Assembly (NCBI GenBank): GCA_035504415.1
Contig: DATJRY010000005.1
Coordinates: 62,001 to 126,000 of the forward strand
Origin: Candidatus Sulfotelmatobacter sp.
GTDB taxonomy: Bacteria; Vulcanimicrobiota; Vulcanimicrobiia; Vulcanimicrobiales; Vulcanimicrobiaceae
DNA: 64,000 nucleotides
Direction: 5' to 3'
Under the pieces are notes generated by a model, which worked only from the letters and a program-made list of their open reading frames with translations, did no database searches and was not told the origin of the DNA. Made by a program: the position numbers and the translations under genes. Of the stretch, positions 45,100 through 47,828 are shown one piece after another (the stretch's first letter is position 1; every line of letters begins with the position of its first letter).

Positions 45100-45879
45100 A
45101 TGCAAACGATCGAGCTGACCCGCGACGGGGCCGTCGCGACGGTGACGCTGAACCGGCCGCAGGTTCTTAATGCTCTTAACCTTCAGCTGCTCGGTGAGCT
45201 CACCGAGGTGCTCGACGAGCTCGCGAACGACGTCACCGTGCGCGCGGTGATCCTGACCGGCGCGGGGCCGAAGGCGTTCGCGGCCGGCGCCGACATCGGC
45301 GAGCTCAACGCGCTCGCCGACGCGCGAGCCGGCGAGGCGCAAGCGCGCCGCGGCCAAGCGCTGACCCGCGCGTTCGAGCGCATGCGTCCGCCCGTCATCG
45401 CGGCCGTCAACGGCTTCGCGCTGGGCGGCGGGTGCGAGCTGGCGATGGCGTGCGACATGCGCATCGCGAGCGAGAACGCGAAGTTCGGTCAGCCCGAGGT
45501 CAACCTCGGCATCCTGCCCGGCTACGGCGGGACGCAGCGCCTCACGCGCCTGGTCGGCGAGGGGATGGCGATGTACATGTGCCTGTCCGCCGAGATGATC
45601 GACGCGGCGACGGCGCTGCGGGTGGGCCTGGTCCACAAGGTCGTCGCGCCGGACGAGCTGCTGCCCGAAGCGACCCGCCTGGCCACGGTCATCGCCGGCA
45701 AGGCCCCGTTGGCCGTCGCCGCCGCCAAGCGAGCGATCGTCGAAGGCGCCGACCTGGGACTCGACGCCGCGCTCGCGCTCGAAGCCTTCCTGTTCGGCCA
45801 GACCGTCGCGACGCAGGACTTCCGGGAAGGCTCGCGCGCCTTCCTCGACAAGCGCCCCGCCACGTTCACCGGGAACTAG
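45100..45879 (+). CDS. Enoyl-CoA hydratase/isomerase
   Basis: A 259-residue crotonase. AAGADIGELNAL (first oxyanion-hole and CoA region), VIAAVNGFALGGGCELAMAC (second oxyanion Gly and catalytic Glu), FGQPEVNLGILPGYGGTQRL (second Glu) and ALRVGLVHKVVAPDELLPEA are all conserved. It hydrates 2-enoyl-CoA in fatty acid or amino acid breakdown. It stands alone, divergent from phoU with about 60 bp between. Confidence 0.94.
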   Translation: MQTIELTRDGAVATVTLNRPQVLNALNLQLLGELTEVLDELANDVTVRAVILTGAGPKAFAAGADIGELNALADARAGEAQARRGQALTRAFERMRPPVIAAVNGFALGGGCELAMACDMRIASENAKFGQPEVNLGILPGYGGTQRLTRLVGEGMAMYMCLSAEMIDAATALRVGLVHKVVAPDELLPEATRLATVIAGKAPLAVAAAKRAIVEGADLGLDAALALEAFLFGQTVATQDFREGSRAFLDKRPATFTGN

Positions 45880-45893
45880 CTCCCGGGCCGGGG

Positions 45894-46163
45894 ATGATGA
45901 GCGGGCCGCCGAAATCCGGCTCCATGTCGGCGCGCGCGTATCGCGTGATCTTGGAGCCGGACGGAGACACGCTCCGCTGCATCATCCCGGCCTTCCCGGG
46001 CATCTTCACCTTCGGTACCGATCGTGAGGATGCGTTGCGCATGGCCGCCGACGCCATCGCCCTCGAAATCGAGCACGCGACCGAGTGTGGCCTCCCCGTC
46101 CCGGAACCCGACGCGGACACGCCGATGCTCATCGAACGCGTCGCCGTCGAACCCGCCGCCTAA
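45894..46163 (+). CDS. HicB-like antitoxin
   Basis: Up to 89 residues (ATG at 45894 or 45897; ATG at 45924 gives MSARAYRVILEP). The core YRVILEPDGDTLRCIIPAFP-GIFTFGTDREDALRMAADAI matches the partial RNase-H fold of HicB antitoxins, with the typical CGLPVPEPD ending. No DNA-binding helix-turn-helix follows, so it is the short form. It comes before a HicA-like gene (5-bp gap), the reverse of the more common hicA-hicB order. Confidence 0.78.
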   Translation: MMSGPPKSGSMSARAYRVILEPDGDTLRCIIPAFPGIFTFGTDREDALRMAADAIALEIEHATECGLPVPEPDADTPMLIERVAVEPAA

Positions 46164-46168
46164 GCGAA

Positions 46169-46330
46169 ATGGCAGAGAAACTCCCGGTCGTCACAGGCGG
46201 CCAGCTTCGTCGCGCACTCCGCCGTGCCGGCTGGACCGAGGTACGCCAGCGCGGGTCCCACGTGCGCCTCGAAAAGGGTGCGTCAGCCTCACCGTACCCG
46301 AAGCTGGGACGGCTGCTGTTCAAGGCTTAG
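46169..46330 (+). CDS. HicA-like mRNA interferase, possibly truncated
   Basis: 53 residues. TGGQLRRALRRAGWTEVRQR-GSHVRLEKG is the N-terminal HicA half, including the catalytic His in GSH. The expected second half (V-P-H..., then a helix ending in ...AGL) is missing: the frame continues SASPYPKLGRLLFKA and stops. After the KG codons the +1 frame reads VSLTVPEAG, closer to the family pattern, so a frameshift is possible. Intact HicA is usually 60-80 residues. It sits at the edge of the low-GC island. Confidence 0.6.
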   Translation: MAEKLPVVTGGQLRRALRRAGWTEVRQRGSHVRLEKGASASPYPKLGRLLFKA

Positions 46331-46533
46331 CGCTACTCGGACGGTTGGCGCCTAAGCGATGACGGAAGCACGCTACGTCAGCGAAGGCGACCGAGTTTTG
46401 CTCAAGGCCCGGTCTGTGGGACCGACTATCCAGAACTATCGGAGGGCATTCCCCGGCCTAGAATTGGAGGCAGAGCAAACGCGGCAAGAGAACCAACCGC
46501 TTTGTTTGCTGCCCCGGGGGCTTGGCGTGATCG
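46331..46533. other. Transition into low-GC island, no assured gene
   Basis: A 74-residue frame (46359-46583, MTEARYVSEGDRVLLKARSV...) is open, but it overlaps the YEATS gene, has no recognisable domain and has poor codon bias. GC content falls along this stretch. No direct repeats or integrase remnants are visible. Confidence 0.35.
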
Positions 46534-47229
46534 ATGACCCCTGTTGCGAGTCCAGTTCCACAGGTTCTAGCGCCTGCCTATAATCCGACGCATGACCTCT
46601 TAGCGTTGGTGCCCGCCTTGATCTGGCCACTGGCGCTCTTGATCCTAGTATTAGCTTTCCGCGAGACCATAGCCCAGTTGACGCAGCTTATCATGAACCG
46701 CGTGCGGGATGGCGGCGCCGTGAAGCTTTGGCAGTTTGAACTAGGACAGACGTACGTCTCAAGTGGAGGTGTCACACAAAACGCAAACGCGATACATGAG
46801 CGTGATGACGTCGACCGTAGCAGACGTCATGAGCGAGCTGAGCTTGCAATGGCAAGTCGCCGTGTCTATATTGTGCACCGCCTTCAGACATCGCGCGACC
46901 CAACGCAACTTTACGACATTGTGCTGTACGCGATTCCGGCGAAGGAAGGCACCCTCGCGTCCGTGCGCCATATAGAATATTTCTTCGGACGGTCATGGGG
47001 GCACCGCATCTTCACGTCCGATGACCGAGCTAAAGGGTTTCCGGTAACTTTGTCTGCCTGGGGTCCATTCTTATGCACGGCCAAGATAGTTTTTACGGAC
47101 GACGAATCCTACACTATGTATCGCTTTATTGACTTTGAAATGGGACCCGTAGGGGCGGCGAGTGGCGAGCGAAACGCGAGCCCAACTGAGAGGCCTGTCC
47201 CTGGAGTACCTCCGCCACGAAGCCAATAA
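46534..47229 (+). CDS. Membrane-anchored prokaryotic YEATS-like (pYEATS) protein
   Basis: 231 residues. A single transmembrane helix, ALIWPLALLILVLAFRETIA (about residues 28-47), is followed by a basic juxtamembrane helix and KLWQFELGQTYV. The C-terminal domain (about 107-205) has RRVYIVHRLQTSRDPTQLYD-IVLYAIPAKEG, HIEYFFGRSWGHRIFTSDDR, FPVTLSAWGPFLCTAKIVF and SYTMYRFIDFEMG, matching the bacterial YEATS-like pattern of LYDV-LY, YFG-WG and RYIDFE. In comparative work such domains are tied to conflict systems, as I recall; the ligand is unknown. Base composition is about 50-58% GC in two lines counted here (30/60, 35/60), far below the neighbours, indicating transfer. Confidence 0.75.
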   Translation: MTPVASPVPQVLAPAYNPTHDLLALVPALIWPLALLILVLAFRETIAQLTQLIMNRVRDGGAVKLWQFELGQTYVSSGGVTQNANAIHERDDVDRSRRHERAELAMASRRVYIVHRLQTSRDPTQLYDIVLYAIPAKEGTLASVRHIEYFFGRSWGHRIFTSDDRAKGFPVTLSAWGPFLCTAKIVFTDDESYTMYRFIDFEMGPVGAASGERNASPTERPVPGVPPPRSQ

Positions 47230-47288
47230 CTCAAAGGCTCATCGGCTTGGATCGACCCATCTGAGGGCACGCCAATCTGTGATGCCGG

Positions 47289-47828
47289 TCAGCGGCTGGC
47301 GGTGGTGCGGACGGGGGTCAGGCGGGCGGTGACGGTCGCCATGGCCCGCTCGATGTCGGGGTCGTAGCCGATCCAGCGGGCACGGATGCGGCCGCTCGGG
47401 TCGATCGCGACCAGCGTCGGGTAGCCTTCGACGCCGAAGGCGTGGGCGACGGTCTGATCGGGGTCCAGGGCAACCGCCGCCATCGCAAAACGGTGCGCGA
47501 ACGGGCGGACCACGCCGTTCGGCTCGCCGACGTCGACCGAGACGACCCGCACGCCCGGGTGCGTGCGCCGGAAGTGCTGCACGAGCGGAATCGAGGCGCG
47601 GCACGGGTCGCACCAGGTCGCCCAGAAGTCGAGGAACACGACCTGGCCGCGCGCGTGGGTGAGGTCGAAGCGGCCGCCGTCGAGCGTCGCCAGCGAGACC
47701 GGCGGTGCCTGCGTCGGCGCGGGATGCAGGCGGGGGAGGACGACGAAGCGCAGGGCGGCCGCGAGGACGATCAACGCAGCCAGGACGTCGAGCCCGCGCG
47801 CCAGCCACCGGCGCGGCGGCTGCGGCAC
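47289..47828 (-). CDS. TlpA-type thioredoxin-like protein
   Basis: A 179-residue membrane-anchored thiol protein. An N-terminal helix (GLDVLAALIVLAAALRFVVL, residues 12-31) anchors it, and the thioredoxin domain has the active site FWATWCDPCRAS (Cys73, Cys76) and the cis-Pro in VEGYPTLVAID. The start is GTG at 47828. Such proteins reduce periplasmic disulfides, often for cytochrome c maturation, which fits the cytochrome c encoded elsewhere. It is divergent from a DUF2249-Crp regulator, with 54 bp between the start codons. Confidence 0.9.
   Translation of the reverse strand: MPQPPRRWLARGLDVLAALIVLAAALRFVVLPRLHPAPTQAPPVSLATLDGGRFDLTHARGQVVFLDFWATWCDPCRASIPLVQHFRRTHPGVRVVSVDVGEPNGVVRPFAHRFAMAAVALDPDQTVAHAFGVEGYPTLVAIDPSGRIRARWIGYDPDIERAMATVTARLTPVRTTASR

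What the first reader, a model, noticed from the sequence alone, without database searches (positions are those of the whole stretch)
46340..47280. Low-GC island carrying a lone membrane-anchored YEATS-like protein
In a window of very high GC, about 900 bp drops to roughly half GC (30/60 and 35/60 in two lines counted). It carries one clear gene: one transmembrane helix plus a C-terminal domain with the LYDIVLY, EYFFG-WG and RFIDFE pattern of bacterial YEATS-like domains. In eukaryotes YEATS reads acylated lysine. Bacterial versions have been linked by comparative genomics to conflict systems, but to my knowledge ligand and effector are undefined. Here no effector gene is adjacent, so the protein may act alone at the membrane, or sense something for a partner elsewhere.
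Basis: partly seen in the sequence, partly recalled or inferred. Interest (0 to 1): 0.65.

Follow-up and report, generated by a model that had tools for sequence, protein, structure and literature searches.

The report
Membrane-anchored bacterial YEATS island gene
A recently acquired gene in a high-GC bacterium makes a membrane-anchored relative of the YEATS 'reader' domain that eukaryotes use to recognise acylated proteins; it sits beside a broken toxin-antitoxin pair, and its ligand and job are still unknown.

Summary
Window 46534-47229 (+) encodes a 231-aa protein with one N-terminal membrane helix and a C-terminal prokaryotic YEATS domain (Pfam PF20305, 54.7 bits, cut-off 26.9). A profile of eight relatives finds human GAS41 as its best solved structure, and the AlphaFold model matches GAS41. 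The gene lies in the lowest-GC 900-bp stretch of 223 kb of its contig.

Correction to 'lone': the gene is the distal part of a 1,409-bp insertion (45880-47288) between two convergent genes. The insertion also holds HicB and a broken HicA. In 9 of 10 congeners these two genes abut or overlap. The tenth carries a different toxin-antitoxin pair (RES/Xre) at the same junction.

Membrane-anchored relatives are rare and scattered (Sulfuritalea, Kordia, Chitinophaga and kin), always lower in GC than their surroundings, and mostly beside tRNA genes, integrases or toxin-like genes.

Best reading: horizontally moved conflict cargo encoding an inner-membrane, cytoplasm-facing YEATS sensor. Ligand and output are inferred. 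A tempting link to beta-oxidation neighbours (4 of 4 at first) failed on other loci (0 of 3).

The parts
45880..47288 (.). Whole insertion between the enoyl-CoA hydratase gene (45100-45879 +) and the TlpA/thioredoxin-like gene (stop at 47289, -)
   Evidence: Spacing 1,409 bp here; 1 bp or overlap in 9 of 10 congeners; 1,425 bp of other cargo in the tenth
46361..47288 (.). Low-GC part of the insertion
   Evidence: GC 0.55-0.61 against 0.70; lowest 900-bp window of 223 kb
46534..47229 (+). TM-pYEATS gene, 231 aa, intact
   Evidence: Open frame; PF20305 E 9.6e-15; full-length relatives of 207-230 aa with the same layout
46585..46656 (+). Codes for membrane helix (residues 18-41), followed by a basic juxtamembrane segment (NRVRDGGAVKLWQFELG)
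   Evidence: Model helix 18-41; hydropathy and positive C-flank; motif shared by relatives
46858..47145 (+). Codes for the YEATS beta-sandwich (residues 109-204)
   Evidence: Seven strands; ten-residue blocks of pLDDT 75-92; Foldseek hits to GAS41, YEATS2, AF9, ENL, Yaf9; GAS41 best by profile, E 6.8e-5
46996..46998 (+). Trp155, aligned with AF9 Phe59 / GAS41 Tyr of LHESY in the acyl-lysine pocket
   Evidence: Alignment; Trp in 7 of 7 close members; pocket residues from PMC12362337
47059..47061 (+). Trp176, aligned with AF9 Tyr78 / GAS41 Trp of GWGEF
   Evidence: Aromatic in 8 of 8 members; Pfam block masking shows this block carries most of the score
45897..46163 (+). HicB-like antitoxin, host-like composition
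   Evidence: PF15919 E 6.4e-7; GC 0.68, codon percentile 0.31; 73% identical DNA with its HicA partner in congener G008
46169..46330 (+). Remnant of HicA toxin gene, frame-disrupted
   Evidence: PF07927 matched only over positions 3-27 of 58; intact relative in L050

Best explanation
The gene is horizontally acquired conflict-type cargo that landed, next to or together with a HicAB toxin-antitoxin module, in the junction of two convergent housekeeping genes. It encodes an inner-membrane protein with its N-terminus outside and its YEATS domain in the cytoplasm. The YEATS domain most likely binds a flat or acylated group, or a protein carrying one, between Trp155 and Trp176. Binding then changes the assembly of the membrane helix and the basic juxtamembrane segment, which either recruits a partner or disturbs the membrane itself. 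Shown: membrane segment, YEATS fold and homology, recent acquisition, shared insertion hotspot, rarity and island setting of relatives, pocket substitutions. Inferred: topology, ligand class, signalling or toxic output, role in phage or plasmid conflict.
For: PF20305 well above its cut-off. Profile and fold matches to eukaryotic YEATS. Absent from 59 relatives; congeners have the empty junction. A sister species carries RES/Xre at the same junction. Relatives sit beside tRNA-Lys plus tyrosine integrase plus PIN (Chitinophaga), tRNA-Pro (G1555), an integrase (G1090), HepT/MNT (Sulfuritalea) or NERD (Kordia). The gene is lower in GC than its locus in 8 of 8 pYEATS loci compared. Other pYEATS proteins on rhizobial plasmids are fused to SIR2 or FRG and neighbour caspase, CHAT, TIR or S8 genes. 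Positive charge lies on the C-terminal side of the helix in all six proteins that have one.
Against: No effector is fused to it or conserved next to it across relatives. PADLOC has no model for it. It was not found in plasmid, phage or viral collections. The pocket histidine is replaced and the serine is not conserved, so acyl-lysine need not be the ligand. No integrase, tRNA or terminal repeat bounds this particular insertion. The model's global score is low (pTM 0.46) although the domain is well predicted.
Confidence: 0.5

Rival explanations
1. Self-contained membrane toxin or abortive-infection effector: ligand binding to the YEATS domain makes the helix and juxtamembrane segment oligomerise and depolarise the membrane, so that no partner is needed.
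For: No conserved neighbour across seven loci; the conserved basic juxtamembrane segment follows the helix in six of seven proteins, with a hydrophobic moment of 0.48 in this one; TA-like setting.
Against: Only one membrane helix; the juxtamembrane moment is low in some relatives (0.19-0.22); one Chitinophaga copy has decayed, as accessory genes of any kind do.
Confidence: 0.25
2. Orphan sensor for a partner encoded elsewhere, or a remnant of a larger lost system, here no longer functional as a defence.
For: Fused and neighbouring effectors are usual in plasmid pYEATS; HicA beside it is broken; one relative is a pseudogene.
Against: The reading frame is intact and the domain core is conserved at 36-38% full-length identity with intact relatives in other phyla, with identical layout as a single gene.
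Confidence: 0.2
3. Metabolic acyl sensor tied to beta-oxidation: a crotonyl- or acyl-lysine reader placed beside the genes that make and use crotonyl-CoA.
For: In the first four loci seen the nearest chromosomal gene was enoyl-CoA hydratase (window, Sulfuritalea), acyl-CoA dehydrogenase (Kordia) or thiolase (Chitinophaga).
Against: Prediction written down before reading new loci failed: G1555 and G1090 show none, and G948, read before the prediction, shows none (G1090 lies at a contig end). In Chitinophaga the thiolase merely flanks a tRNA-Lys with an integrase. In this genus the same junction took up RES/Xre.
Confidence: 0.04

Closest known systems
pYEATS, Pfam PF20305 (prokaryotic YEATS domain)
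   Same: Domain passes the curated cut-off; strands and the A-[WYF]-G motif match
   Different: Most plasmid examples seen here are C-terminal to SIR2, FRG or large multidomain proteins and keep H-[PD]-[TS]-F; this one is anchored by a single helix, stands alone and has G-x-x-W
Eukaryotic YEATS readers (GAS41/YEATS4, YEATS2, AF9, ENL, Yaf9)
   Same: Beta-sandwich; aromatic pair of the acyl-lysine cage and Phe81 position kept
   Different: Pocket His56 is Gly and Ser58 is variable in the subfamily; membrane helix; no chromatin; the single sequence gives no PF03366 match at E 1
HicAB and RES/Xre toxin-antitoxin modules at the same chromosomal junction
   Same: Same insertion site in two species of the genus
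   Different: The YEATS gene is not a recognised toxin or antitoxin; its low GC differs from the host-like GC of HicB, so it probably arrived separately

Membership tests
pYEATS (PF20305) | Profile score above curated cut-off | tested here: met
   54.7 bits against 26.9
pYEATS (PF20305) | YEATS beta-sandwich fold | tested here: met
   Model of the domain with ten-residue blocks at pLDDT 75-92; YEATS structures dominate PDB hits at E near 2e-4, TM-score about 0.5-0.56 on the target length; a polysaccharide-deacetylase beta domain ranks first by a small margin
Acyl-lysine reader YEATS | Aromatic sandwich (AF9 Phe59, Tyr78, Phe81 positions) | tested here: met
   Trp155, Trp176, Phe179; aromatic in 7 of 7 close members
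Acyl-lysine reader YEATS | His56 and Ser58 positions of the pocket | tested here: not met
   Gly152 in 7 of 7 close members; position 154 is Ser here but Tyr, Phe or His in relatives
Acyl-lysine reader YEATS | Binding to acylated lysine | not testable with these tools
   Needs a binding assay
Anti-phage or other conflict system | Accessory, mobile distribution and defence-type neighbours | tested here: met
Anti-phage or other conflict system | Protection or toxicity phenotype | not testable with these tools
   No experiment possible; no PADLOC model
HicAB toxin-antitoxin | Intact HicA and HicB pair | tested here: not met
   HicB present, HicA disrupted

The most novel reading that the evidence does not exclude
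A single-gene bacterial membrane receptor that senses protein acylation or a similar planar modification through a re-modelled YEATS pocket (Gly for His, Trp for Phe) and itself triggers a membrane response during infection or stress, without any partner gene.
Probability: 0.15. Interest if true: 0.8.

Novelty: new variant of a known kind. Interest (0 to 1): 0.42.

Why it matters
Ligand and action of bacterial YEATS domains appear undefined; I found no paper on them in the library searched. A compact, intact, single-gene version with a defined pocket signature and its own membrane anchor is about the simplest system in which to find both. If it reads an acyl mark, it would give a bacterial counterpart to a eukaryotic chromatin reader and a possible ancestor of its sensing role.

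Tried and rejected
Close-relative scans with the single protein found nothing in genome and viral collections, and two DNA motif scans of viral contigs were empty. An alignment of divergent pYEATS was too variable to scan with. I therefore made a degenerate query (A4), whose second to fourth rows are artificial variants used only to widen the search motif. Its three hits are natural sequences confirmed against the real protein. A Neorhizobium plasmid match was chance. The beta-oxidation link was proposed on four loci and rejected on others. Terminal repeats or a tRNA at this insertion: none found. Rfam: nothing. Viral structure library: no match at E 0.001 or better, and the top hits are not YEATS proteins. 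One search (PF05014 in the own genome) did not bear on the question. The primary paper that I recall from memory as describing pYEATS (Burroughs and Aravind 2020) was not found in the library, so what it says about membrane-anchored forms could not be checked.

Full report
OBSERVATION. The window lies in a 4.17-Mb, about 70% GC genome (G000, contig C5). Bases 46534-47229 (+) encode 231 aa. GC of 46361-47260 is 0.562; among 5,562 windows of 900 bp in 223 kb of the same contig the mean is 0.700, sd 0.030, and this stretch is the minimum. GC3 is 0.57 against about 0.90. Pfam gives pYEATS PF20305 at E 9.6e-15. Masking blocks of the domain shows that WGPFLC carries most of the score, then HIEYFF and GRSWGH. 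The genome has no second copy.

THE INSERTION. The DNA comparison with ten congeners shows homology up to the 3' end of the enoyl-CoA hydratase gene and again from the TlpA-like gene. Measured stop to stop, the junction is 1,409 bp here. It is 1 bp or an overlap in nine congeners and 1,425 bp in G006 (one computed overlap of 191 bp may be a tblastn end effect). G006 carries an antitoxin with sigma-70 region 4, Xre-like HTH and MbcA/ParS C-terminal domains, followed by a RES toxin. Here the insertion holds HicB (PF15919) and a disrupted HicA (PF07927 over 25 of 58 positions), then the YEATS gene. HicB has host-like composition and the YEATS part does not, so the two probably arrived in separate steps. 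An intact HicAB relative lies elsewhere in congener G008. No integrase, tRNA or terminal repeat was found at this site.

DISTRIBUTION. The protein is absent from 59 relatives. Among 149 genomes of the phylum three have PF20305: this one, G085 and G121. In G085 a 136-aa pYEATS is preceded by a 218-aa protein with two hydrophobic stretches and no Pfam match; in G121 a fragment lies by a phage-type integrase (integrase assigned from its sequence, not by a family search). A widened motif scan of the genome collection found three relatives at 47-54% identity over the domain: Kordia, Sulfuritalea and Chitinophaga niastensis. A profile of these (A6) found one in 369 genomes of the Sulfuritalea class, two in 79 Chitinophaga-genus genomes, two in 399 of the Kordia family, two in 399 of the Sulfuritalea family and three in 396 of the Chitinophaga family; these counts include the seed genomes and two weak or divergent hits (G948, G1604). 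The family is therefore rare and scattered over at least three phyla. It was not found in plasmids, phages or viral contigs at the sensitivity used.

ANATOMY OF THE FAMILY. Full-length members (207-231 aa) share a single helix, a juxtamembrane motif close to R-[LVI]-[KR]-x-G-x-x-x-[KR]-[ILV]-x-x-x-E-[LI], a variable linker and the YEATS domain with [LY]-Y-D-[ILF], A-[WYF]-G-x-F-L-C and R-[YF]-I-D-F-E-M-G. Basic residues follow the helix in every member that has one, which by the positive-inside rule puts the domain in the cytoplasm (inference). G1090 has a shorter protein without a clear helix.

FOLD AND POCKET. The model has a helix at 18-41 and seven strands at 111-199, with ten-residue blocks at pLDDT 75-92 there but overall pTM only 0.46. 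PDB fold hits are mainly GAS41, YEATS2, AF9, ENL and Yaf9 at E about 2e-4 to 1e-3, with a polysaccharide deacetylase just ahead at rank 1. By sequence profile the best 19 PDB hits are all YEATS (GAS41 E 6.8e-5). The AF9 pocket consists of F28, H56, S58, F59, Y78 and F81 (PMC12362337). On the profile alignment to GAS41, with AF9 numbering carried over by its LHESF and GYAGF segments (from my own knowledge of that sequence), these correspond, except F28, to G152, S154, W155, W176 and F179. In the seven close members position 152 is always Gly, 155 always Trp, 176 always aromatic and 179 always Phe, while 154 varies. The stacking pair is kept and the polar contacts are not. The ligand may therefore be a planar group other than, or bound differently from, acyl-lysine (inference).

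CONTEXT OF RELATIVES. Chitinophaga: tRNA-Lys, tyrosine integrase, YEATS gene, PIN gene; in C. niastensis the YEATS gene is broken by a frameshift and a stop. G1555: about 290 bp from a tRNA-Pro. G1090: integrase within 2 kb. Sulfuritalea: HepT/MNT pair next door. Kordia: NERD gene nearby. G948: no such neighbour. The gene is lower in GC than its locus in all eight cases examined, G085 included. More distant pYEATS on rhizobial plasmids are fused to SIR2 or FRG, or neighbour caspase, CHAT, TIR or S8 genes. This is a conflict-type setting. G1604 encodes a zincin-type peptidase with two pYEATS stretches.

A LEAD THAT FAILED. The first four loci all adjoined beta-oxidation genes, which would fit a crotonyl reader. 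I wrote the prediction down before reading new loci. G1555, G1090 and the already read G948 do not fit (G1090 is at a contig end), and in Chitinophaga the tRNA explains the site. I treat it as coincidence unless a larger survey says otherwise.

VERDICT. A real, recently acquired, intact gene of a rare membrane-anchored subfamily of pYEATS with its own pocket signature, in a toxin-antitoxin insertion hotspot. Mechanism is inferred: a cytoplasmic YEATS sensor tied to the inner membrane, acting alone or through an unknown partner.

Noticed in passing
L019:1638-3031 (G006): At the same chromosomal junction a sister species carries a RES toxin and a 302-aa antitoxin that combines sigma-70 region 4 with Xre-like HTH and MbcA/ParS C-terminal domains, an unusual fusion.
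   Followed up: partly
L018:8369-9402 (G085): A 136-aa pYEATS gene overlaps the 3' end of a 218-aa gene with two hydrophobic stretches and no Pfam match: a possible sensor-effector pair.
   Followed up: partly
L049:5763-7193 (G1604): A metallopeptidase of zincin type carries two pYEATS stretches (PF20305 E 1.8e-27).
   Followed up: no
L030, L031, L043, window 45100-45879: In the first four loci the TM-pYEATS gene lies beside beta-oxidation genes; not repeated in three further loci.
   Followed up: yes
window 46169-46330: HicA toxin gene is disrupted while HicB keeps an open frame; an intact pair exists elsewhere in congener G008 (L050).
   Followed up: yes
L041:1293-2511: The tyrosine integrase of the Chitinophaga tRNA-Lys island is split into two frames, so that island may be fixed.
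   Followed up: no
window 46557-46584: A sigma-70-like promoter match (10 of 12) lies just inside the predicted start of the YEATS gene; relatives' lengths favour the upstream start.
   Followed up: no
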